Shown here: in pieces, positions 4,390-57,038 of the stretch
How the letters are laid out: each line of letters begins with the position of its first letter
Numbering within the stretch: the stretch's first letter is position 1
From: Polyangiaceae bacterium
Lineage (GTDB): Bacteria > Myxococcota_A > Polyangia > Polyangiales > Polyangiaceae
NCBI GenBank assembly: GCA_009781005.1
Contig: WQYX01000019.1
Span: 1-60,201 of the forward strand
Length of the DNA stretch: 60,201 nt
Direction: 5' to 3'
Position numbers and translations under genes: made by a program
Notes under the pieces: model-generated
What the model saw: the letters and a program-made list of their open reading frames with translations, nothing else
Databases searched by the model: none
Told to the model about the DNA's origin: nothing

Positions 4390-5274
4390 ATGAATCGTGT
4401 TCTGGCACGCTTTCTGGCTCGCTCGGCGCGCGCGTCGTTCGTGATGGTTTGTGCCTTGTTTTCCCTTGCTGGATGTATGCGTACACCTTCTCCGCTTTCG
4501 CCACATATCCAGGGATCGATTGGCTTACCGCATGACGGTGTACTCACAGGTGCGCACGAACTTCCATGCAACACGGGTTCAATCCGCTGTCTTCGCCAGA
4601 ACCATCGACACTTCGGAACGCCGCGTTTCATCGCCGGCATTCAGCGCGCGGCCGCGAAAGTCGCTTTCGCAAGACCGTCCTCAATGCTCACGGTTGGCGA
4701 CGTATCAGCAAGAGGCGGAGGCCGTATTTCGTCGCACGCCTCACACCGAACGGGACGCGACGCCGATCTTCTCTTTTACTTCGTGACGCTCGAAGGTGTG
4801 CCCGTAACGACACCTGACTTCCTCCGCGTCGGCAACGACGGTCTCGCGTGGGATCCATCGAGTAAGCGATTCCTCCGTCTCGACGTCGAGCGCGAGTGGG
4901 CGCTCGTCAAAGCTCTCATCTCGGATGACGACGCGCGCATCCAGTGGCTCTTCGTGAGCAGACCCGTTCGAGCCATGCTTCTCGAGTGGGCGCGCGCGCG
5001 CGGCGAGTCGACCGAGACTCTCGCGCGCGCCATGGACGTGCTGCTGCAACCGGGGCCTCCCGCGCAGCCGCACGACGATCACATTCACGCGCGCACGGCG
5101 TGCGATCCCGACGAAACGGCTCATGGATGCGAGCCGTTTGGACCGGTCCGTCCGTGGATTGCCGCGTTCGATGAGGCGTCGGCGCGAACGATTGCACAGG
5201 CCGACTCGATGCAAGTGCTGCTCGAGGCCATCCTCCGTCCCCTCGATTCTTCGGATGTGCACGCCAGCCGCTGA
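4390..5274 (+). CDS. mepA: penicillin-insensitive murein endopeptidase, MepA-like lipoprotein
   Basis: 294-aa M74-family LAS metallopeptidase that cleaves peptide cross-links in peptidoglycan in the periplasm. Zinc and active-site motifs are present: SSHASHRTGRDADLLFY (His and Asp ligands) and the late HDDHIHAR block. A lipoprotein signal with LAGC at about residue 25-28 suggests anchoring to the outer or inner membrane. The ATG at 4390 is preferred over the upstream TTG because it starts the basic part of the signal peptide. The gene is divergent from the small ORF at 4288, and the 101-bp gap is AT-richer and probably holds both promoters. The downstream methyltransferase starts 20 bases before this gene ends. 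Confidence 0.88.
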   Translation: MNRVLARFLARSARASFVMVCALFSLAGCMRTPSPLSPHIQGSIGLPHDGVLTGAHELPCNTGSIRCLRQNHRHFGTPRFIAGIQRAAAKVAFARPSSMLTVGDVSARGGGRISSHASHRTGRDADLLFYFVTLEGVPVTTPDFLRVGNDGLAWDPSSKRFLRLDVEREWALVKALISDDDARIQWLFVSRPVRAMLLEWARARGESTETLARAMDVLLQPGPPAQPHDDHIHARTACDPDETAHGCEPFGPVRPWIAAFDEASARTIAQADSMQVLLEAILRPLDSSDVHASR

Positions 5275-6175
5275 CAACGTCCTCGTTCACGGTGACGCGC
5301 GCACTCTCGGCGCAACACTCGCATCCGCGAGCTTCGATCTCGCGTATCTCGATCCACCCTTCAAAGTCGAGAAGTCATTCGGCGCGCGTCTCACGCGAGG
5401 CGGTCGCGCAAGCGGTCCCATCGCGTACGAGGACACCTGGCCGTCGCTCGCAGCTTACCTCGCGTGGCTCGAAGAGCGTGTCGCCATCGTTCGTGATCTG
5501 CTCTCGGCGCACGGCACGATGTGGCTGCATCTCGACGCGCGCGCCGTGCACGAAGCGAAGGTGCTCTGCGATCGCATCTTCGGCAAGAAGTGCTTTCGCG
5601 GCGAAGTGATCTGGGTACCAGGCAACGGCAGCAAGAGCCGAAGTGGGCCCGGCATGGGCCATCAGACGCTGCTCCTCTACGCGCGTGGAAGCGATCCCGT
5701 GTGGAACGGCAAGGATCCGGCGCTTCGGGCGCCGTTCGCGGCGACGAGCCAATCTATGCATTTTACACGCACAGACGAGAACGGGCGGCGCTATCGCGAT
5801 CGGATCGTGAGCGGCAAAACGTACCGCTATTATGCGGACGAAGGCCGCGCGCTCGGCAGCGTGTGGACGGATTGCCCGGCCATGACCGCGAACACGCCTC
5901 TTCGTCGTGAGACAACGGGTTACCCAACACAGAAGCCACTCCGGTTACTCGATCGCATCGTGCGAGCGTCGAGCTCGGAGGGATCGCACGTGCTCGATCC
6001 CTTTTGTGGATCGGGCACGACGCTCGTGGCCGCGGCGAGCACCGGGCGCCGCTTTGCCGGATGCGACGTGGGCGCCCTTGCGATCCGCACAACGCGTACA
6101 CGTCTTGATGCCGCCCGCGTGGGTTACACATTCCTCGATGCTTTGCATGTAAAGCATCAATTAGAACGCGTTTGA
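5255..6175 (+). CDS. DNA methyltransferase (N6-adenine/N4-cytosine type)
   Basis: 306 aa. Motif IV DPPF is at residues 33-36 and motif I (LDPFCGSGTTLV) lies near the C-terminus, giving the beta-class order of solitary and type III-like amino-methyltransferases. The target-recognition region sits between them. No restriction gene is adjacent, so it is probably an orphan regulator or a housekeeping methylase; specificity cannot be read. The start ATG overlaps mepA by 20 bases. The last three residues (E-R-V) and the TGA stop come from hairpin element C1. Without the element, the frame would run on for about a dozen codons into the convergent dps gene, so the insertion shortened and altered the tail. 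Confidence 0.88.
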   Translation: MCTPAADNVLVHGDARTLGATLASASFDLAYLDPPFKVEKSFGARLTRGGRASGPIAYEDTWPSLAAYLAWLEERVAIVRDLLSAHGTMWLHLDARAVHEAKVLCDRIFGKKCFRGEVIWVPGNGSKSRSGPGMGHQTLLLYARGSDPVWNGKDPALRAPFAATSQSMHFTRTDENGRRYRDRIVSGKTYRYYADEGRALGSVWTDCPAMTANTPLRRETTGYPTQKPLRLLDRIVRASSSEGSHVLDPFCGSGTTLVAAASTGRRFAGCDVGALAIRTTRTRLDAARVGYTFLDALHVKHQLERV

Positions 6176-6305
6176 TAACCGTCGCGAGCGCCGCGAGGCC
6201 AAGGCGGGTCCGAGGAGCCCGCGTAAGCGTACGTTGTTGTACGTGCGCAGGCACCGCAGGACCCAACGCGGGCATCGCGGCGCGCAGCAGGTTAGCAAAC
6301 GCGTT
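6164..6305. repeat. family C hairpin element, copy C1
   Basis: 142-bp imperfect palindrome with termini AACGCGTTTGATAACC and GGTTAGCAAACGCGTT. It shares the family A apex (GTACGTGCGCAGGCACCGCAG) but has different ends. It is flanked by TTAG (6161-6164) and TTAG (6306-6309), a direct repeat that includes the dps stop codon (TAA on the minus strand). It sits between two convergent genes and supplies the methyltransferase stop. Confidence 0.9.
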
Positions 6306-6782
6306 TTAGCGCAGGTGGGCTTCGACGAACCACAGATCCTTGTCGACCGCGCGTGAGACTTCGGTGAAGAGATCCGCCGTGTCCTTGTCTCCGAGTTTGT
6401 CGGCTTCATCGATGGCTGCGCGGACCTTCGCGCCGTACGCAGCAAGGGACAGAGAGACCGCTTCCACGTGCGCGCGACCGTCCGGAAGGTCCACCGAAGG
6501 TGACTTGAGCGACGAGCGCTTGACGACGGAGCCGAGCAAGCCGTCGGCGACTCCTCCGAGTTGCACCGCGCGCTCTGCGAGATCGTCGACACCGCAAGCA
6601 ACGTGCTCCGCAACAGAGTCGAAGAGCTCGTGCAGCGCGATGAAGTTCGGCCCCTTGACGTTCCAGTGCGCGTGCTTGACTTGGCCATGTAGATCGATGC
6701 CATCGGCAAGACGCGCATCGAGAATTTTCACGATGGCGGCGCGAACATTCTCCGGCAAATCATTCTTCGTTTGATGCATCAT
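6306..6782 (-). CDS. dps: Dps-family ferritin-like DNA-protection protein
   Basis: 158 aa, the usual Dps length. These proteins form dodecamers that oxidise iron with hydrogen peroxide and protect DNA under stress. The family signature HWNVKGPNFIALHELFD (residues 39-55) is followed by DDLAERAVQLGG, which together supply the ferroxidase ligands at the dimer interface. The start is one of two adjacent ATGs (6782 or 6779) with a purine-rich AGGGGG upstream. The gene is 49 bases downstream of pdhC on the same strand, but the functions are unrelated. Its TAA stop is the target duplication of element C1. The N-terminus is short, with few lysines, so strong direct DNA binding is uncertain. Confidence 0.92.
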   Translation of the reverse strand: MMHQTKNDLPENVRAAIVKILDARLADGIDLHGQVKHAHWNVKGPNFIALHELFDSVAEHVACGVDDLAERAVQLGGVADGLLGSVVKRSSLKSPSVDLPDGRAHVEAVSLSLAAYGAKVRAAIDEADKLGDKDTADLFTEVSRAVDKDLWFVEAHLR

Positions 6783-10360: not shown

Positions 10361-10501
10361 AACGCGTTTGCTAACCTGCTGCGCGCCGCGATGTCTTCGT
10401 TGGGCCCTGCGGTGCCTGCGCACGTACAACAACGTACGCTTGCGCGGGCTCCTCGGGCCCGCCTCGACCTCGCGTCGCTCGCAACGGTTATCAAACGCGT
10501 T
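10361..10501. repeat. family C hairpin element, copy C2
   Basis: 141-bp palindrome with termini AACGCGTTTGCTAACC and GGTTATCAAACGCGTT and the shared GTGCCTGCGCACGTAC apex. The flanks show no clear direct repeat, so this copy may be older or recombined. It lies between the kinase gene and the pdh operon, which run in the same direction. Confidence 0.88.
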
Positions 10502-10530
10502 CGGTGCTGCGCGCAGTGCGGCCGGAGCTC

Positions 10531-25813: not shown

Positions 25814-25822
25814 ACTCGATGA

Positions 25823-25945
25823 GACCGCTTTCAAGTTGACGCGAGGTCGAGGCGGGGCCGAGGAGCGGACCGGAATAGCCTGCCTTGGCTTTGAGGACCG
25901 CACCGCAGGCCCCAACGATGAGATCGCGTCAACTTGAAAGCGGTC
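25823..25945. repeat. family B hairpin element, copy B2
   Basis: 123-bp palindrome, 59-base arms around TGCCTTGG. The terminal 22 bp of the two arms are perfectly complementary (GACCGCTTTCAAGTTGAC and onward). The right arm encodes the last residues (G-P-L-S-S) and TGA stop of the desulfhydrase-family gene; the left end is 10 bases upstream of the CPBP gene start. No target duplication is evident. Confidence 0.93.
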
Positions 25946-27032
25946 CTCGGAGATCTTCGCCCTGCGCGAGCAGGCCTGGAAGGCCGCCCGTGTGCAAGAA
26001 GAGCACGTCCGCGCCGCGAGGGATTTGGCCGCGACCGATGGCCTGCGCGAGTCCGAAGAGCGCCTTGCCCGTGTAGACGGGATCGAGCACCAGGCCGGTC
26101 GCGCGAGCAATGCGCACGATGAACCGTTTCTGTTCGTCGGACATGATCGCGTACGCGGGTCCCTTGGCGCTGTCGTCGACGATGACGCGCGCCGCTCCGT
26201 CCGGTGCGACGACATCGGAGCTGCCTGGTTCGATGAACGCGATGGGAGGCAGCGTGGGATCGATTCCGCGAGCTTCGATGCCGATGCGTGCGATGGTCTT
26301 CGTGAAGTACGTGCGATCGTCGCACACGGCAAATGCCCACGTCTCGCGGGCGACGCCAAAGCGTGCAGCGCCGACTGCGACGCCGGCTGCCGTTCCACCC
26401 GATCCGCATGCGTGCGCAACGACGTGGAACCGCGGGGCGTTGCCTGCATTGTACACGGAGCCACCGTGCGCGTCGGCCGTCAGACCAAGGTCGATTTGCT
26501 CCTTCGTCTCGCGCATCGCTTCGACGTAGCCCATCGCACCGAGGCCGTTCGAGCCGCCTTCCGGCACGACGTACGCTGCTTCGCCCAATTCGGCGAGCTC
26601 GACGCGAGCTTGCTCCATCATGCCATCGCGGGCGCGATATTCATCGGGTGAGATGAAACGGATCTCGGCGCCCACGAGCTGGTCGAGCAGCACGTTCCCC
26701 GTGAGCTCGAGAGGCGTCTCGCGTGCGCGCGCCGGATCGGGCACGCGTAAGAAAAGAACGGACCTCAATCCGAGCGCGGCGCACGTGATGGCAGTGGCGC
26801 GCGCGTGGTTCGACTGAAGGCCACCGCACGTGATGACGGTCATCGCTCGCTTGGCGCGTGCATCGGCGAGCAAAAATTCGAGCTTGCGAATCTTGTTGCC
26901 AGCTTCGGCGCCGCCCGTCATGTCATCGCGCTTCAGCCAGATGCGCGCGCCGATGATCTCGTCGAGCACAGGCCGGCGCACGATCGGCGTTGGACCGTGA
27001 ACGAGTGCGATTCGAGGAAGGCGCTCTGTCAT
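25929..27032 (-). CDS. PLP enzyme, ACC deaminase / D-cysteine desulfhydrase family
   Basis: 367 aa. A fold-type II PLP enzyme of the ACC deaminase/D-cysteine desulfhydrase group. The PLP lysine lies in the GNKIRKLEFLL motif and the SNHARA loop follows; the glycine-rich phosphate-binding segment CGSGGTAAGVAVG is present. Members either open aminocyclopropane carboxylate or release sulfide, ammonia and pyruvate from D-cysteine; sequence alone does not separate these. The ATG overlaps the stop of the biotinyl protein (ATGA). The C-terminus P-L-S-S is encoded by repeat B2, so the native tail has been replaced. Confidence 0.87.
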   Translation of the reverse strand: MTERLPRIALVHGPTPIVRRPVLDEIIGARIWLKRDDMTGGAEAGNKIRKLEFLLADARAKRAMTVITCGGLQSNHARATAITCAALGLRSVLFLRVPDPARARETPLELTGNVLLDQLVGAEIRFISPDEYRARDGMMEQARVELAELGEAAYVVPEGGSNGLGAMGYVEAMRETKEQIDLGLTADAHGGSVYNAGNAPRFHVVAHACGSGGTAAGVAVGAARFGVARETWAFAVCDDRTYFTKTIARIGIEARGIDPTLPPIAFIEPGSSDVVAPDGAARVIVDDSAKGPAYAIMSDEQKRFIVRIARATGLVLDPVYTGKALFGLAQAIGRGQIPRGADVLFLHTGGLPGLLAQGEDLRGPLSS

Positions 27033-34858: not shown

Positions 34859-36058
34859 ATGAGGGTTGGAGTGCTCACCGAGCAGCGTGCGTCCGAGAAA
34901 CGCGTGTCGATCGTGCCAGATTCGGTCAAGCGTCTCGCACAAAAGAAAATCGAAATCGTCGTCGAGAAGGGCGCCGGAGCAAAAGCCCTTGCGAGCGATG
35001 CGGACTACGAGAAGGAGGGCGCGAAGGTGGTCTCGTCGGCGGCCGACGTCCTTCAGGCAGCCGACGTCGTCATGCGCGTGCAGGTACCATCCCAAGACGA
35101 AGTTTCTCTCCTTCGTGAAGGTTCGGTGCTCGTCGCGCCGCTCGTCCCGCTCGTCAACCATGATCTCGTTCGGTCGCTTGCCGCGCGCAAGATCACGGCG
35201 CTCGCACTCGACGCGATCCCGCGCACGACGCTCGCGCAGATGATGGACGTTCTCTCTTCGCAAGCAACCGCTGCCGGCTACCACGCCGTGGTTCTTGCGG
35301 CGACTGCGCTTCCGCGCTTCTTGCCCATGCTCATCACCGCAGCAGGAACCATCGCTCCCGCAACGTTGCTCGTTCTGGGCGCGGGCGTCGCGGGCCTCTC
35401 CGCCATTGGCACGGGCAGGAGGCTTGGCGCGCGCGTCGAGGCGTTCGATGTTCGCAAAGTTGCCAAGGAGCAGGTCGAGAGCCTGGGGGCGAAGTTCGTG
35501 GAGGTCGACGCAGACGCGGACGCCGAGGCAGCGGGGGGCTACGCCAAAGAGGTCTCCGACGCGTACAAGGCGAAGCAGGCCGAGGTGCTCGCGCGTCACG
35601 TTGCGCGCGCGGACGCGATCATCTGCACCGCGCTCATTCCGGGCAAGCGCGCTCCTGTGCTCGTGACAGAAGACATGGTCGCGTCCATGAAGCCGGGCTC
35701 CGTCATCGTCGATCTCGCTGCCGAGCAAGGTGGCAACTGCGCTTTGACGGAGGCAGGAAAGACCGTCACGAAACATGGCGTCAACATCCTTGGCGCCGAG
35801 AATTTGCCGAGCCAAATCGCCGTTCACGCAAGTCAAATGTGGTCGCGCAACATGGAAAAGTTTCTCTTACACGTGTCGAAAGGGGGCGAGCTCCAGTTGA
35901 ACGACGCCGACGAGATCGTCCGCGGCTGTCTCATCACGCAGGGCGGTGAGATCGTAAACGATCGCGTTCGCGACGTGCTCGGGCTCGCAAAACTCGAAAG
36001 GCTCGCAAAGAAGGAAGAGACAGCCAAAGAGGATGCAACGAAAGGAGGTGCAGCGTGA
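34859..36058 (+). CDS. pntAA: NAD(P) transhydrogenase alpha-1 subunit (NAD-binding)
   Basis: 399 aa, the soluble dI component of the three-subunit proton-translocating transhydrogenase. The alanine dehydrogenase/PNT-like fold is clear: MRVGVLTEQRASEKRVS, the LVLGAGVAGLSAIGTGRRLGA nucleotide-binding loop (in part) and the mobile-loop region before IICTALIPGKRAPVLVTEDM. Together with pntAB and pntB it transfers hydride between NADH and NADP+ while moving protons. ATG 34859 matches the conserved start. GTG of pntAB overlaps the TGA stop, with an excellent Shine-Dalgarno AAAGGAGGTG inside this gene's end. Confidence 0.93.
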   Translation: MRVGVLTEQRASEKRVSIVPDSVKRLAQKKIEIVVEKGAGAKALASDADYEKEGAKVVSSAADVLQAADVVMRVQVPSQDEVSLLREGSVLVAPLVPLVNHDLVRSLAARKITALALDAIPRTTLAQMMDVLSSQATAAGYHAVVLAATALPRFLPMLITAAGTIAPATLLVLGAGVAGLSAIGTGRRLGARVEAFDVRKVAKEQVESLGAKFVEVDADADAEAAGGYAKEVSDAYKAKQAEVLARHVARADAIICTALIPGKRAPVLVTEDMVASMKPGSVIVDLAAEQGGNCALTEAGKTVTKHGVNILGAENLPSQIAVHASQMWSRNMEKFLLHVSKGGELQLNDADEIVRGCLITQGGEIVNDRVRDVLGLAKLERLAKKEETAKEDATKGGAA

Positions 36059-41122: not shown

Positions 41123-42298
41123 ATGATCGACTTCGAACTCACCGAGGAAGAGCGAGCCCTCATTGACACGGCCAAGCGCTTTGCCAAAGAGCGTATTCTC
41201 CCCGTGGCTGCGGAGGCCGACCGCAAGTCCGAATTCCCGCGCGAAGTCTTCAACGAGGCATGGAAATTAGGACTCGCGAATCCCACGCTCCCAGCGGAAT
41301 ATGGAGGAGCGGGGCTGTCCGATCTCGATTCGGCAATGATCACCGAGGAGCTCGCCTACGGCTGTAGCGGTATCCAAACCAGCGTGACGGCGAACACTCT
41401 TGGCATGACACCCATCAAGCTTGCGGGCAGCGAAGAGCAAAAGAAAAAATATCTCGGCTGGCTCGTGAGCGAACCTATTTTCGTGAGCTATGCAACCACC
41501 GAACCCGGCGCGGGCAGCGACGTCGCAGGAATGCAAACGCGCGCCACGAAGCAGTCCGACGGAAGCTATGTCTTGAACGGCACCAAGGCGTGGATCACGA
41601 ATGCGAACTTCGCCAGCTTTTACGTGATCTTCGCAACGGAAAATCCGGAGCTCCGTCATAAGGGCATTGGCGCATTCATCGTGCATCGCGATCAAAAGGG
41701 CCTGTCCGTTGGCAAACACGAAGACAAGCTCGGTCAGCGTGCAAGCGACACGGCCATGGTCATGCTCGACGGCGTCGTCGTTCCTCCGTCGCAGGTGCTC
41801 GCACCGCCGGGCCATGGCTTCAAGGTGGCCATGGAGACCTTCAATCAGACGCGCCCCGATATCGGTGCAATTGCGGTTGGCATCATGCGTCGCTGTCTCG
41901 ACGAGTGCGTCGCGTATGCGAAGGAGCGCAAGACCTTCGGCACACCAATTGCCAATCACCAGCTCGTTCAAGCCATGATTGCGGAGATGGCCATTCGCAT
42001 TCAGGCAACGCGTCTGCTCGTTCACAAGGCGGCATGGAGTCTAGATAAGGGGATTCGTGATCCGCTCACGTCGAGCTGTGCGAAGGCCTACGGTGCGGAC
42101 GCAGCCATGCAGTCTGCCATGGATGCGGTGCAGATTTTTGGCGGCAATGGTTACGTCAAAGAATACCCTGTCGAGAAATTGATGCGCGACGCCAAGATCC
42201 TTCAAATTTACGAGGGGACGGCGCAGATCCAGCGCGTAGTCATTGCCAGGCAAGTTTTAGAGCATGTTTACGAGCCGTCGCGAGCGAATCGAGGTTAG
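41123..42298 (+). CDS. acyl-CoA dehydrogenase
   Basis: 391 aa FAD enzyme of beta-oxidation or amino acid breakdown; it makes the first double bond in acyl-CoA. Family blocks are clear: VSYATTEPGAGSDVAG, YVLNGTKAWITNA, KLGQRASDTAMVMLDGVVV, ERKTFGTPIANHQLVQ, FGGNGYVKEYPVEKLMRDAK and the catalytic Glu in IYEGTAQIQR. ATG 41123 begins MIDFELTEEE. The last 13 codons (E-H-V-Y-E-P-S-R-A-N-R-G plus stop) come from hairpin element A9. If the element and one TTA copy are removed in silico, the protein ends R-Q-V-L-G, the typical end of the family. Confidence 0.95.
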   Translation: MIDFELTEEERALIDTAKRFAKERILPVAAEADRKSEFPREVFNEAWKLGLANPTLPAEYGGAGLSDLDSAMITEELAYGCSGIQTSVTANTLGMTPIKLAGSEEQKKKYLGWLVSEPIFVSYATTEPGAGSDVAGMQTRATKQSDGSYVLNGTKAWITNANFASFYVIFATENPELRHKGIGAFIVHRDQKGLSVGKHEDKLGQRASDTAMVMLDGVVVPPSQVLAPPGHGFKVAMETFNQTRPDIGAIAVGIMRRCLDECVAYAKERKTFGTPIANHQLVQAMIAEMAIRIQATRLLVHKAAWSLDKGIRDPLTSSCAKAYGADAAMQSAMDAVQIFGGNGYVKEYPVEKLMRDAKILQIYEGTAQIQRVVIARQVLEHVYEPSRANRG

Positions 42299-42402
42299 GG
42301 CGGAGCGCGAGGAGCCCGCGCAAGCGTACTCTTCGTACGTGCGCAGGCACCGCAGCGCCCAACCGACGAATCGATTCGCGCAGCAGGCTGATAAACATGC
42401 TC
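42260..42402. repeat. family A hairpin element, copy A9 (inside the 3' end of a gene)
   Basis: 143-bp element with termini GAGCATGTTTACGAGCC and GGCTGATAAACATGCTC, flanked by TTA (42257-42259) and TTA (42403-42405). It lies in frame in the acyl-CoA dehydrogenase gene and supplies its present stop codon. Apex type is GTAC-TCTTC-GTAC. Confidence 0.95.
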
Positions 42403-42407
42403 TTAGG

Positions 42408-42938
42408 TTGAATCTCCAAGCAAAGACGATTGCGGCGATGCTCCTCGTTGGATTGGGCACTGCGGGAGCATGCTCGCTGAACGCGCCACGAGATATCGTT
42501 CCTGAGTCGCACGACATTCATGAGACCAGCACGCAAAACGACAGCGGCGCGGCCGTGCCGCGTGACGGATACGTGTATGTTGCAACTCGAGCGCACGCCG
42601 TCGTGGGCGTGGTGGGGGCCAGGCAGATCACAGTCCCCGAAGCTTCCCGCATCGCCGATCTCATCGCCAATGAGCTCGAATCGTGCGCCGTAAGCAAGGA
42701 GCGAGACGGAACGCTCGCCGTGGGTGCAGCGAGCCTCGTGCTCGTTGCGACAGCGCGTGGGACTGTCGTGAGCGATCTGCGTCTCTCACCGGGGGGGCCG
42801 GTGGCTGCAAACGCCCTCGAGTGCCTTGTGGCCCCGGTGCGCACCATTCAATTACCGAGCACTGATGCAGGGATCACCGCGCTCGCCTTGGACGCCACGT
42901 GGAACCCCGCTGTTGTTGACCACAAGGCACCGCCGTAA
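42408..42938 (+). CDS. lipoprotein of unknown function
   Basis: About 176 aa. Signal peptide QAKTIAAMLLVGLGTAGAC ends in a lipobox. The mature part has a short polar linker and a beta/alpha domain (VYVATRAHAVVGVVGARQIT, SRIADLIANELESCAVSKE, RGTVVSDLRLSPGG in parts). No family is recognised. The TTG at 42408 is proposed as start because it lies just after repeat A9 and begins the signal sequence; an ATG at 42438 would leave an incomplete signal. Before the insertion, this TTG overlapped the TGA that would have ended the dehydrogenase gene. The TAA stop is inside a perfect palindrome. Confidence 0.62.
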   Translation: MNLQAKTIAAMLLVGLGTAGACSLNAPRDIVPESHDIHETSTQNDSGAAVPRDGYVYVATRAHAVVGVVGARQITVPEASRIADLIANELESCAVSKERDGTLAVGAASLVLVATARGTVVSDLRLSPGGPVAANALECLVAPVRTIQLPSTDAGITALALDATWNPAVVDHKAPP

Positions 42939-42976: not shown

Positions 42977-43032
42977 GACCGCTTTCAAGTTGAAGGCCCC
43001 AACGATGAGATCGCGGCAAATCGAAAGCGGTC
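42977..43032. repeat. family B element, copy B4 (centre deleted)
   Basis: 56 bp: intact termini GACCGCTTTCAAGTTGA and CAAATCGAAAGCGGTC with only part of the inner arm (GGCCCCAACGATGAGATCGC) left. It is one base from the TAG stop of the minus-strand gene at 43034. It shows that B copies can collapse to bare ends. Confidence 0.85.
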
Positions 43033-47010: not shown

Positions 47011-47858
47011 TGTCGACCGATCTCGCCCCTTCACGCAAGAGCAATCCCGACGACGAAAACCCCACTCACGTCGAACCCGAAGGCGACGTGAAGATGACGA
47101 TTTGGGAGCACCTCGCGGAGTTGCGCACCCGCCTCGTGCGTGCAGCCATTGCCATGTTCGTGGGAGCCATTGTTTGTTGGATCTTCCGTGAGAAACTCCT
47201 TTCGTGGCTCTCCGCGCCGTACATGGTCGCGTGGCGTGACAAGTTCCCGAACGATCCGCCGGAGCTGCAGACGCTCGCGCCCGCCGACGCATTTGTAAAC
47301 TACATGCAATTGTCGCTCGTGGGGGGTGTGGTGCTCGCCGCCCCCATCATCTTCTACCAATTGTGGGCATTCATCAGCCCGGGCCTTTACGCGCGCGAAA
47401 AGCGCTACATCATTCCGTTCGTCCTCTTTTCGACGAGCCTATTCCTCGCGGGTGTTGCGTTTGCTTATTACGTCGCATTCCCATTTAGCTTCCAGTATTT
47501 CTTTTCCCTGCTCGGCGACGTCGGCGGCGTCAAACTCACGTCGCGCCCGACCATGGAGTTTTATCTCGATTTCACGACTCGAATGCTCCTGGCATTCGGG
47601 TTCGTTTTCGAACTACCGCTCTTCATCGCCTTCCTCGCACTCGCCGGCATTGTCACGCCGCGCCAGCTCGTGCGCTTCAGCCGTTGGGCCATCATTAGCG
47701 CCTTCGTGATTGGCGCGTTCGTCACGCCGGGACCCGAGGTTTCGAGCCAAATCGCCGTCTCGCTCGCCTTGGTGGGACTCTACTTTATCAGCGTAGGCGT
47801 GGCATTCGTCGTCGCCAAGAAGCGCGACGACGAATCCTCAGAATCGAATAACGAGTAG
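47010..47858 (+). CDS. tatC: twin-arginine translocase subunit TatC
   Basis: 282 aa with six transmembrane helices. Family motifs include MTIWEHLAELRTRLVRAA, the periplasmic LQTLAPADAFVNYMQLS region, LWAFISPGLYAREKRYIIPF, and a FVFELPLFIAFLA helix with the conserved Glu. It forms the signal-peptide receptor of the Tat system. The TAG stop (47856-47858) shares its last base with the first base of element B5, which lies between this gene and the convergent rsfS. Confidence 0.95.
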   Translation: MSTDLAPSRKSNPDDENPTHVEPEGDVKMTIWEHLAELRTRLVRAAIAMFVGAIVCWIFREKLLSWLSAPYMVAWRDKFPNDPPELQTLAPADAFVNYMQLSLVGGVVLAAPIIFYQLWAFISPGLYAREKRYIIPFVLFSTSLFLAGVAFAYYVAFPFSFQYFFSLLGDVGGVKLTSRPTMEFYLDFTTRMLLAFGFVFELPLFIAFLALAGIVTPRQLVRFSRWAIISAFVIGAFVTPGPEVSSQIAVSLALVGLYFISVGVAFVVAKKRDDESSESNNE

Positions 47859-47979
47859 ACCGCTTTCAAGTTGACGCGAGGTCGAGGCGGGGCCGAGGAG
47901 CGGACCGGAATAGCCTTGTGTGGCTTTGAGGACCGCACCGCAGGCCCCAACGATGAGATCGCGTCAAATCGAAAGCGGT
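47858..47979. repeat. family B hairpin element, copy B5
   Basis: 122-bp palindrome with termini GACCGCTTTCAAGTTGACG and CGTCAAATCGAAAGCGGT. Left end coincides with the tatC stop codon; right arm encodes the last residues and TGA stop of rsfS on the other strand. It therefore forms the 3' end of two convergent genes at once. Confidence 0.93.
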
Positions 47980-48551
47980 ACGGGGATGCGCCGCGCATCC
48001 ATCCACAACGAATCGATATCGTATGCAGAGCGCGCATCATCTTGAAAGACGTGCACCACCACATCGCCGAAATCCATCAATACCCAGTTTGCGTGAGGCA
48101 GTCCTTCGACTGCGAGAGCACGTTTGTTGCGCTTGCGTAGAGCTTCTTCGATTGCGTTCGACAGCGCGGTGACATGGCGATCGCTGCGGCCCGACATGAG
48201 CACCAGGAAGTCAGCGTAGTCGACACGGCCAGCAACATCGATCACCTCGAGGCCCGATGCCTTCTTCTCGATGGCCTCGATTGCGATCGTGATGGCCATC
48301 TCGCGCGACTCGTCGCTCGCGATGCTCGTCGCGCCAGGAGTAGCCTTTTGCTCGATGCCGCGATGGGCCCCGGCGGGCGCCGCGCGCGGCGCGGCAGTCT
48401 TCGACGAACGATCTCGGACCTTCGCCGGACGCGAGGCTGCATCGGGGGCAACCGTTTGGTTGCGCGACGTCGTTTTGCTGGGCGCGCCGTGGGATGTGCG
48501 AAGCATCGGGCGGTTCGGCCCCTTGGGAGGCGGACGTTTGTTCACGGACAA
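47964..48551 (-). CDS. rsfS: ribosome silencing factor RsfS (with N-terminal extension)
   Basis: 195 aa. The C-terminal 110 residues form the RsfS/DUF143 domain (AIEAIEKKASGLEVIDV, DYADFLVLMSGRSDRHVTALSNAIEEAL, NWVLMDFGDVVVHVF), which binds ribosomal protein L14 and blocks subunit joining in starvation. An 85-residue basic, low-complexity extension (KRPPPKGPNRP and following) precedes it, longer than in most homologues. It is downstream of proA with a 34-base gap, the order seen in many bacteria where nadD or proB are also near. The last four residues P-L-S-I and the stop come from element B5. Confidence 0.9.
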   Translation of the reverse strand: MSVNKRPPPKGPNRPMLRTSHGAPSKTTSRNQTVAPDAASRPAKVRDRSSKTAAPRAAPAGAHRGIEQKATPGATSIASDESREMAITIAIEAIEKKASGLEVIDVAGRVDYADFLVLMSGRSDRHVTALSNAIEEALRKRNKRALAVEGLPHANWVLMDFGDVVVHVFQDDARSAYDIDSLWMDARRIPVPLSI

Positions 48552-54186: not shown

Positions 54187-54211
54187 CGGTCATCCATGAA
54201 AACAAAGCTAT

Positions 54212-54331
54212 ACCGCTTTCAAGTTGACGCGAGGTCGAGGCGGGGCCGAGGAGCGGACCGGAATAGCCTTGGTTGGCTTTGAGGACCGCACCGCAGGCCC
54301 CAACGATGAGATCGCGGCAAATCGAAAGCGG
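54212..54331. repeat. family B hairpin element, copy B7
   Basis: 120-bp palindrome with termini ACCGCTTTCAAGTTGACG and CGGCAAATCGAAAGCGGC. The right end is one base before the plsB ATG, so its GAAAGCGG may now act as the ribosome binding site. No target duplication is evident. Confidence 0.93.
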
Positions 54332-54332
54332 C

Positions 54333-57038
54333 ATGGCGTCGTATGAACCCAATCCGGTGCTGGCTTGGATTTACCATCGCTTCTTCGAGCATATCGGAGT
54401 CGATAAAGCTTGGGCCGATCGCGTTCGACAGGCCGAGGCACGTGGAACGGCCGTTTATATTTTACGCAATCTCTCCTTCGTAGACTTTCTCGCGCTCGAT
54501 TATCTCACCAAGCGCCTCGGCCTGCCGCAGGTGCGCTTCGCCAACGATCTTGGCCTGTGGGTTTTCGAGCCCATGGGGCGCGGATGGCTGTCAGCGCTCG
54601 AACCGCGCAGCGAGGCACGCGAGATCGAGCGCCTTCGGCGCGTGCTCGACGACGGTTTTTCGGCAGCATTGTTTCTGAAGCGTCCGCCGTCGTTGCTCGA
54701 ACCGTCGGCTGTCTCGCGCCAGCGTGGCGGCACCGTCACACCGCTGCCAACGCGCGGCAAGACCGAGGGCGACGCCTACCTTCGAGGGATCCTCGAAGCG
54801 CAGCGCGCGCAGAGCACACCGATTCTTCTCGTTCCGCAGGTCTTCGTGTGGACGCGCAACCCAGACGCGCGCAAGCAAAACGCTGTCGATGCGCTGTTCG
54901 GGCCGCGTGAGTGGCCGGGCAAAATCCGCACGGTCATGCAGTTTCTCGCGAATCGGCGGTACGTCACGCTTCGCGCCGGTGAGCCCGTCGACGTTCGCGC
55001 ATTCCTCGAGCAAGAGATGCATGGTCACGACGGAGAAGCGCCTACCGACGAGGTGCTCGTTCGTCGGCTCACGTACACGCTTTTGCGGCGTCTCGAGCGC
55101 GAGCGCCGCAGCGTCATCGGTCCGGCAAAAAAAAGTGCGGACCGTTTGCACGATCAGGTCGTGCGCAGTCCCCGCCTGCAGAAGTTCATTCGCAACATGG
55201 CAGGCGAAGGCGCGACGGAGCGGCGTGTGCTCGGTTTCCGCGCCCTGTCCATGCTGCGCGACATGGAAGCCGAGGTCGATCAAAATGCCGTACGCGCACT
55301 CAACGCTGCGTGCGACCACACCATCAAACGGATGTACGCGGGCATCGAGATCGACGAAGCAGGTCTCGCCCGTCTGCGCGAAGCCGCGAAGGATGGAACC
55401 CTCATCCTTCTGCCAAGCCACAAATCACACGTCGACTACATCATTCTGACGCGTCTCTTCTTCCGATCGAACATGCCCGTCCCCATCGTCGCGGCGGGTG
55501 ACAACCTCGCGTTCTTTCCGCTTGGCCCCATCCTGCGTCGCGCCGGAGCATTCTTCATCCGCCGAAGCTTCAAGGGCGATCGTCTCTACGGCGCCGTCGT
55601 CGACGCGTACATGCGTCGCCTGCTGATGGACGGATGGAGCCTCGAGTTTTTTCTCGAAGGCGGCCGCTCGCGAACGGGAAAGCTTCTACCGCCGAAGCTC
55701 GGGCTCCTGTCGATTGTCGTCGACGCCGTTCTTGGTGCAGAGAAAGGTTACAGCGCGCGCAGAGTCTTTTTCTGCCCGATCTCGATCGGCTACGAGCGCG
55801 TGGTCGAAGAGCGCTCGTACGTCCGTGAGCTCACCGGAGGCGACAAGCAGAAGGAAGATGTCGGCGGTCTCCTCCGCGCCGCCGAGACGGCGCTGGGTCG
55901 CTACGGACGGCTCAACGTGCAGTTCGGCGAGCTTCTCAACCTTCAACAGATCCTCGGCGAGATCGAACGCGAACGGCCCAGCGACGGTGCAACGAGTGAT
56001 CTCGCGAAGCTCACTCCCCCCAAGCGCCGAGCGCTCGTCACGCGCCTCGCCTACCGCGTGATGAACGAGATCAATCGTGTCACCGCCGTGACACCTGGCG
56101 CGCTCGTCGCCACAGCGCTTCTGACACACAAAAAAAAGGGGATCTCGCATCCGGATCTCGTCGCCGCGTGCGACCGCATCGCCCGTATCCTCGTCGGCTC
56201 GAAGGCCCGCTTCACCCCGTCGCTCGTCCGCGCGCGCACCGTGCGCGGTGCGCTGCCCGTTCTTCGTCACGAGGCCATCTGCGAAGCGTGCGAGCTTTTT
56301 CTCCGCGCCGGGCATGTCGAGGTGCACCGCCCGGGAGATCCGATCGGCGACAAGCGTTCGGTTCGCCCTGGTCCCGAAGCGTTCTACGTCGTGCCGGACG
56401 TGGCGCGCCTCTCGCTCGACATCGCAAAGAACCTCCTCGTTCATTTCTTCGTTTCGCGCGCCATGATCGCCATCCCGCTCACGGCGCGCGACGGCGCTCG
56501 TGCTCACGACGCGGCCGGCGCTTTCGACCACGCGTTGCTCGCCGAACGCACGCAAGCGCTCTCACGCCTGTTCAAGTACGAGTTCCAGTTTCGCGCAGAC
56601 GCATCCTTCGAAACCATCTTCGCCGAGACGCTTTCGGCCATGGAGTCGGACGGCGAAATCACGCGCGACGCTTCTGGCAACGTGCGCCTCGCGAGCGAAG
56701 GCGAAGGCCACGAACGTATGGTGCTCTACGCGCGCATGGTCCGTCACTTCGTCGAGGGTTACGCGGCCGCGGCGCGGTCGCTCGCGGCGCTGCTCAAAGG
56801 AGCACTCTCGCACAAGGACCTCGTCAAGCGCGCGATGGCCATTGGTGAACGCATGTTCCTCGCGGGCGAGATCGAATCGCGCGAAGCGGTGAGCCGCCCC
56901 ATCGTGGAAAACGCGCTGCTTGCATTCGTCGATCTCGGCTACCTCGCACGCACCGAGGGCAAACTGGCTCTGCCCGAGAGCTGCGCGACGAGCGAAGCCG
57001 TGCGCACGGTCGAAGGACGCGTCGCTAGTTACTTGTAG
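54333..57038 (+). CDS. plsB: glycerol-3-phosphate acyltransferase PlsB
   Basis: 901 aa, close to the roughly 800-aa norm for PlsB. It acylates glycerol-3-phosphate at the membrane, the first step of phospholipid synthesis. The acyltransferase blocks are intact: HKSHVDY (residues 363-369, catalytic His and Asp), GDNLAFFPLGPILRRAGAFFIRRSF and the EGGRSRTGKLLPPKLGLL segment. An N-terminal 300-residue region and a long C-terminal region are typical. ATG 54333 is exactly at the end of repeat B7, and no other start is nearby, so the leader of this essential gene is the hairpin. It ends 11 bases before the permease gene. Confidence 0.92.
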   Translation: MASYEPNPVLAWIYHRFFEHIGVDKAWADRVRQAEARGTAVYILRNLSFVDFLALDYLTKRLGLPQVRFANDLGLWVFEPMGRGWLSALEPRSEAREIERLRRVLDDGFSAALFLKRPPSLLEPSAVSRQRGGTVTPLPTRGKTEGDAYLRGILEAQRAQSTPILLVPQVFVWTRNPDARKQNAVDALFGPREWPGKIRTVMQFLANRRYVTLRAGEPVDVRAFLEQEMHGHDGEAPTDEVLVRRLTYTLLRRLERERRSVIGPAKKSADRLHDQVVRSPRLQKFIRNMAGEGATERRVLGFRALSMLRDMEAEVDQNAVRALNAACDHTIKRMYAGIEIDEAGLARLREAAKDGTLILLPSHKSHVDYIILTRLFFRSNMPVPIVAAGDNLAFFPLGPILRRAGAFFIRRSFKGDRLYGAVVDAYMRRLLMDGWSLEFFLEGGRSRTGKLLPPKLGLLSIVVDAVLGAEKGYSARRVFFCPISIGYERVVEERSYVRELTGGDKQKEDVGGLLRAAETALGRYGRLNVQFGELLNLQQILGEIERERPSDGATSDLAKLTPPKRRALVTRLAYRVMNEINRVTAVTPGALVATALLTHKKKGISHPDLVAACDRIARILVGSKARFTPSLVRARTVRGALPVLRHEAICEACELFLRAGHVEVHRPGDPIGDKRSVRPGPEAFYVVPDVARLSLDIAKNLLVHFFVSRAMIAIPLTARDGARAHDAAGAFDHALLAERTQALSRLFKYEFQFRADASFETIFAETLSAMESDGEITRDASGNVRLASEGEGHERMVLYARMVRHFVEGYAAAARSLAALLKGALSHKDLVKRAMAIGERMFLAGEIESREAVSRPIVENALLAFVDLGYLARTEGKLALPESCATSEAVRTVEGRVASYL

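What the first reader, a model, noticed from the sequence alone, without database searches (positions are those of the whole stretch)
42257..42411. In silico excision of A9 restores the normal end of acyl-CoA dehydrogenase
With the element and one TTA removed, the reading frame is CAA GTT TTA GGT TGA, giving R-Q-V-L-G-stop, the usual acyl-CoA dehydrogenase end. With the element present, the protein gains E-H-V-Y-E-P-S-R-A-N-R-G before a stop within the hairpin. This is a clear case of insertion into an existing gene, with the element supplying a new tail. The excised form also makes TTG of the next lipoprotein gene overlap TGA (TTGA), matching the coupling seen elsewhere in the window.
Basis: partly seen in the sequence, partly recalled or inferred. 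Interest (0 to 1): 0.72.

Follow-up and report, generated by a model that had tools for sequence, protein, structure and literature searches.

The report
Mobile repeat rewrites an enzyme's tail
A small jumping DNA element (a MITE apparently moved by an IS5-type transposase) landed two codons before the stop of an acyl-CoA dehydrogenase gene and replaced its last amino acid with a 12-residue tail; this is well supported but fairly ordinary, and most sister copies spare their neighbours by landing exactly on stop codons or just behind genes.

Summary
Element A9 (42260-42402, 143 bp, ends GAGC..GCTC) is flanked by TTA/TTA target duplications. Removing element plus one TTA gives CAA GTT TTA GGT TGA and a 380-aa protein. 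Relatives without the element end there: all 29 orthologs read are 379-382 aa, and all 11 same-genus ones end in Q-[VLI]-[LF]-[GAS](G)-stop. The window protein is 391 aa, with QVL-EHVYEPSRANRG. The element also split a probably coupled junction (excised TTGA here, GTGA/ATGA in five relatives). A9 belongs to a MITE family with about 335 exact ends in this genome and 71 in a termite-gut relative; ten other same-genus genomes have no match. IS5-family transposase fragments in the same genome carry the same end, GAGCATGTTTACCAG. A9 is not typical: 32 of 62 paired copies sit exactly on a gene's stop codon, which the TNA duplication recreates, and 13 more lie within 60 nt after a stop. A second tail-donating copy was found: a cytochrome c assembly gene reads through a whole element (339 aa versus 278-299 in relatives). 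Kind: new member of a known kind (bacterial MITE fused to an ORF).

The parts
41123..42298 (+). acyl-CoA dehydrogenase (MCAD-like), 391 aa, extended by the element
   Evidence: Pfam PF02771/PF02770/PF00441; closest solved structures are medium-chain ACADs; orthologs 379-382 aa
42257..42259 (+). left target-site duplication TTA, in-frame Leu codon 379 of the gene
   Evidence: sequence; TNA duplications identical on both sides in 58 of 62 paired copies
42260..42402 (+). MITE A9: 143 bp imperfect palindrome, ends GAGCATGTTTACGAG / CTGATAAACATGCTC
   Evidence: RNA fold -80.6 kcal/mol, z -6.45; 5 of 144 positions differ from the family consensus
42260..42298 (+). element part read as the new C-terminal tail EHVYEPSRANRG plus TAG stop
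   Evidence: translation; predicted disordered, residues 383-391 pLDDT <50
42403..42405 (+). right target-site duplication TTA
42406..42411 (+). original last codon GGT and stop TGA of the dehydrogenase, now orphaned
   Evidence: matches the ortholog ends G-stop / A-stop
42408..42938 (+). downstream probable lipoprotein gene, TTG start overlapping the old TGA
   Evidence: homologue just downstream in most same-genus relatives, 42-62% aa identity; no Pfam match
42264..42938 (+). alternative ORF: ATG inside the element's end, in frame with the lipoprotein (+48 aa)
   Evidence: ORF list, translation; judged an unlikely start because it would bury the signal peptide (inference)

Best explanation
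A9 is a non-autonomous IS5-type MITE that inserted into a TTA (Leu) codon two codons before the stop of an acyl-CoA dehydrogenase gene and duplicated TTA. The ribosome now reads 12 codons of the element's left arm (EHVYEPSRANRG) before meeting a TAG built into the element, so the enzyme ends in an 11-residue-longer, probably disordered and tolerated tail. The insertion also moved the lipoprotein gene 146 nt away from the stop codon with which its start had overlapped and put a strong hairpin between them, which probably ended translational coupling. Shown here: empty-site form in relatives, TSD, multicopy family, tail sequence, shared end with IS5-family transposase fragments. Inferred: mobilisation by that transposase, tolerance of the tail, loss of coupling.
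For: Relatives without the element end at 379-382 aa with the expected C-terminus and, in most of the genus, the lipoprotein homologue next door. Clean TTA/TTA duplication. The family has TNA duplications, identical in 58 of 62 paired copies. Hundreds of ends in this genome and 71 in G009, no match in ten other same-genus genomes. IS5-family transposase fragments (NF033580, E 9e-41 to 2e-11; DUF4096 and DDE_Tnp_1) lie beside ends GAGCATGTTTACCAGGA, or GAGCGTGTTCGACAGC in sister ISs. The last helix ends at residue 382 and the tail is predicted unstructured. A second fusion in G000:C1: cytochrome c assembly protein of 339 aa versus 278-299 aa in relatives.
Against: No element-free strain of the same species was available; the nearest empty site is 92% identical at protein level. 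The tail has not been seen as protein. No full-length IS with both ends was recovered because copies break the contigs. The lipoprotein ORF remains intact, so loss of expression is not shown. The closest relative G009 lacks the overlapping start.
Confidence: 0.93

Rival explanations
1. The element was kept because it is useful: its hairpin and tail uncouple the two genes or terminate/stabilise the mRNA, so this is an adaptive regulatory insertion.
For: Very stable hairpin; copies concentrate at gene 3' ends; orientation bias among stop-landed copies, 25 versus 8.
Against: 3' ends are also the most harmless places for any TNA-targeting element; no intrinsic terminator was detected at A9; A9 lies in the minority orientation; nothing shows fixation.
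Confidence: 0.12
2. The extended end is an assembly artefact: a repeat joined two contigs wrongly.
For: Repeat copies break contigs elsewhere in this draft genome (contigs begin or end inside copies).
Against: Both flanks match one syntenic locus (dehydrogenase then lipoprotein) in relatives, and the duplication is exact.
Confidence: 0.03
3. The element is a REP/BIME-type or protein-coding palindrome (RPE-like) selected to be translated, rather than an IS-derived MITE.
For: Palindromic, about 150 bp, long open frames, two gene fusions.
Against: TNA duplications, ends shared with IS5-family transposase fragments, and most copies outside coding sequence.
Confidence: 0.05

Closest known systems
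IS5-family (IS1031-like) MITEs
   Same: Short palindromic non-autonomous element, ends beginning GAGC, 3-bp TNA duplication, ends shared with IS5-family transposase fragments in the same genome
   Different: This family, from a Polyangiaceae lineage, was not matched here to any named element (ISfinder was not available); inner TIR hexamers vary and often differ between the two ends of one copy
Bacterial MITE-ORF fusions (ERIC/RU, Correia 107-bp form; reviewed in PMC2229807 and PMC10969869)
   Same: Element frame fused in frame to a host ORF
   Different: Here the fusion supplies only the last 12 residues and a stop, in a conserved metabolic enzyme, with an explicit TSD and empty sites in relatives
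Rickettsia palindromic elements (RPE)
   Same: About 100-150 bp palindromes that can be translated inside genes; the C1 cytochrome c assembly copy resembles this
   Different: RPEs often insert in frame inside genes with a conserved peptide; here about half of the copies sit on stop codons and only two coding fusions were confirmed

Membership tests
MITE (non-autonomous IS derivative) | Short, multicopy, terminal inverted repeats, no transposase gene | tested here: met
   143 bp; 335 exact TIR-pattern matches in the genome; paired lengths mostly 140-159 or about 190 bp including TSDs
MITE (non-autonomous IS derivative) | Target-site duplication | tested here: met
   TNA on both sides, identical in 58 of 62 paired copies; TTA/TTA at A9
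MITE (non-autonomous IS derivative) | Ends shared with an autonomous element in the same genome | tested here: met
   GAGCATGTTTACCAG beside IS5-family transposase fragments L089, L096, L098; whether an intact autonomous copy exists is unknown
MITE (non-autonomous IS derivative) | Actually mobilised by that transposase | not testable with these tools
   needs a transposition assay
IS5 family, IS1031-like subgroup | IS5-type transposase | tested here: met
   NF033580 transpos_IS5_3, E 9.4e-41 for the L092 fragment, which passes the cut-off; shorter fragments match below it
IS5 family, IS1031-like subgroup | 3-bp TNA duplication at a complete IS copy | tested here: inconclusive
   only single IS ends recovered; TNA flanks some (L087, L094, L098) and not others (L086, L089, L096, L099)
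Rickettsia palindromic element | Frequent in-frame insertions inside coding genes | tested here: not met
   32 of 62 copies on stop codons, 13 within 60 nt after a stop; one of 62 has its stop deep inside the element
REP/BIME | 20-60 nt units linked to a RAYT transposase | not tested
   unit length (143 bp) and TSD argue against; RAYT was not searched

The most novel reading that the evidence does not exclude
The TNA-targeting IS5-type element uses stop codons as safe landing sites: TGA and TAA are themselves TNA targets and are rebuilt by the duplication, and TAG is rebuilt by T-TA plus the element's first G, so the element can spread through a gene-dense genome at gene ends without changing proteins. 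A9 would be a near miss that shows the cost.
Probability: 0.3. Interest if true: 0.55.

Novelty: new member of a known kind. Interest (0 to 1): 0.4.

Why it matters
It gives a clean before/after pair for how a small mobile element rewrites the end of a conserved metabolic enzyme. The family around it, abundant in two small genomes and undetected in ten same-genus genomes, suggests how a 3-bp target that doubles as a stop codon may let a repeat fill a gene-dense genome with little damage.

Tried and rejected
A two-ended family-wide pattern was badly built and is uninformative; it was replaced by a nucleotide search, which found only weak partial matches outside the two genomes. A second apparent +39 tail (L045) was rejected because the open frame there runs antisense to a likely real gene whose stop is the TSD. 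No Rfam family (best match far below its gathering score), no sigma-70-like promoter and no terminator-like site at A9. Stop-codon enrichment was checked against three nulls: all TNA sites (expected 3.4%), non-coding TNA sites (13.5%), and TNA sites in a stop codon or within 60 nt after it (53.5%). Against the last the excess is modest (32 of 45, p = 0.012), so a stop-specific targeting mechanism is not claimed. Literature searches for stop-codon landing by MITEs returned no direct precedent among the titles and abstracts listed; this is not proof of absence.

Full report
Observation. The sequence is as described. The element lies at 42260-42402, with TTA at 42257-42259 and 42403-42405, followed by GGT TGA. 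The present sequence gives a 391-aa protein ending QVLEHVYEPSRANRG and a TAG inside the element. Joining the flanks with one TTA gives 380 aa ending QVLG, and the TTG of the next gene then overlaps the TGA. Four-base overlaps occur elsewhere in the window, for example ATGA at 27029-27032 and GTGA at 36055-36058.

Test on relatives. The protein was searched in 58 genomes of the same genus, family and order, and the ends of 29 orthologs were read. All are 379-382 aa. All eleven same-genus orthologs end in Q-[VLI]-[LF]-[GAS] and then stop (two with one more G), and none has the element at this site. The nearest, G009 (92% aa identity), reads GRQVLG-TGA and has the lipoprotein homologue (62% identity) directly downstream. 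The same locus appears in the named record WQZB01000089 (Polyangiaceae bacterium Emb289P4bin44); sample code Emb289 is the gut of the termite Embiratermes neotenicus (PMC7024585).

The element family. A9's best sisters are 96-97% identical, and A9 differs from the consensus of 18 aligned copies at 5 of 144 positions, so it is probably not old. The exact TIR pattern occurs 335 times in this genome and 71 times in G009, with 0 for the reversed control. Ten other same-genus genomes have no match to the element, and beyond the genus only weak partial matches were found. Typical copies are 143-144 bp between TNA duplications; the base before the TSD is mostly C and the base after it mostly G, so the target is about C-TNA-G. 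IS5-family transposase fragments in the same genome abut the ends GAGCATGTTTACCAGGA (L089, L096, L098) or GAGCGTGTTCGACAGC (L086, L094, L099). These fit the IS1031-like part of the IS5 family, known for 3-bp TNA duplications (general knowledge, not tested against ISfinder). No complete IS was recovered.

Where copies land. In 1.66 Mb sampled from both genomes, with genes called by a codon-usage script, 62 copies had both ends. In 27 the duplicated TNA is exactly the TAA or TGA stop of a neighbouring gene. In 5 more the stop is TAG, made of TA plus the following G, and is present on both sides. That is 32 of 62, against 13.5% expected if copies fell on flank-weighted non-coding TNA sites (p about 1e-12). 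Against TNA sites in the stop codon or in the 60 nt after it, the expectation is 53.5% and the excess is small (32 of 45, p = 0.012). The safest reading is that copies survive mainly at gene 3' ends, where the stop codon is the commonest target, with at most a mild further bias. The G009 stretches were chosen to contain copies, which should not affect the fraction of copies on stops. The same classification on the loci of the best matches to A9, which partly overlap this sample, gave 9 of 20 on stops.

How unusual A9 is. It is the only one of the 62 whose neighbouring gene now stops deep inside the element. One further fusion was confirmed outside that set, in a copy with a different, GGA-like flank: a cytochrome c assembly protein (PF01578) at G000:C1:9523-10542 reads through a whole element, 339 aa against 278-299 aa in relatives, and keeps its GTGA overlap with the next gene. 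So tail donation recurs but is rare.

Consequences. The AlphaFold model of the 391-aa protein (mean pLDDT 89.6) ends its last helix at residue 382, and residues 383-391 are below 50. The closest solved relatives are medium-chain acyl-CoA dehydrogenases. A disordered extension beyond the last helix is therefore the likeliest outcome; tolerance is inferred, and the tetramer was not modelled. The inserted RNA folds strongly (-80.6 kcal/mol, z -6.45) and ends a few bases before the lipoprotein's TTG, so reduced coupling is likely but not shown.

Known kinds. MITE frames fused to host ORFs are described for ERIC, Correia and RPE elements (PMC2229807; PMC10969869). This is a new member of that kind, in a family for which no name was found here.

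Noticed in passing
window 25817-25951, 47852-47986, 54205-54339, 42978-43031; 36 copies of 100-200 bp in 1.26 Mb sampled: A second, unrelated palindromic repeat (ends ACCGCTTTC..GAAAGCGGT, mostly 121 bp) also abuts genes: 23 of 36 copies have a stop codon overlapping or within 5 nt of the element's end.
   Followed up: partly
L066 9523-10542 (G000:C1): Cytochrome c assembly gene with a whole element read through in frame near its C-terminus; the stop and GTGA overlap with the next gene are kept.
   Followed up: yes
62 paired copies, G000 and G009: The inner TIR hexamer comes in several versions, and in G000 29 of 45 copies carry different versions at their two ends (16 matched, 6.9 expected by random pairing), as if ends were exchanged between sister families.
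   Followed up: partly
33 gene-copy pairs where the copy sits on the stop: Orientation bias relative to the gene, 25 in one orientation and 8 in the other; A9 is in the rarer one.
   Followed up: no
window 6157-6308 and 10361-10502: A diverged subfamily with ends GAACGCGTTTGATAACC; gene 5255-6175 has its stop codon inside the copy at 6157.
   Followed up: no
G000 and G009: The two genomes that carry the family are the smallest of the twelve in the genus (4.8 and 4.2 Mb against 6.6-11.9 Mb); G009 comes from a termite gut.
   Followed up: partly
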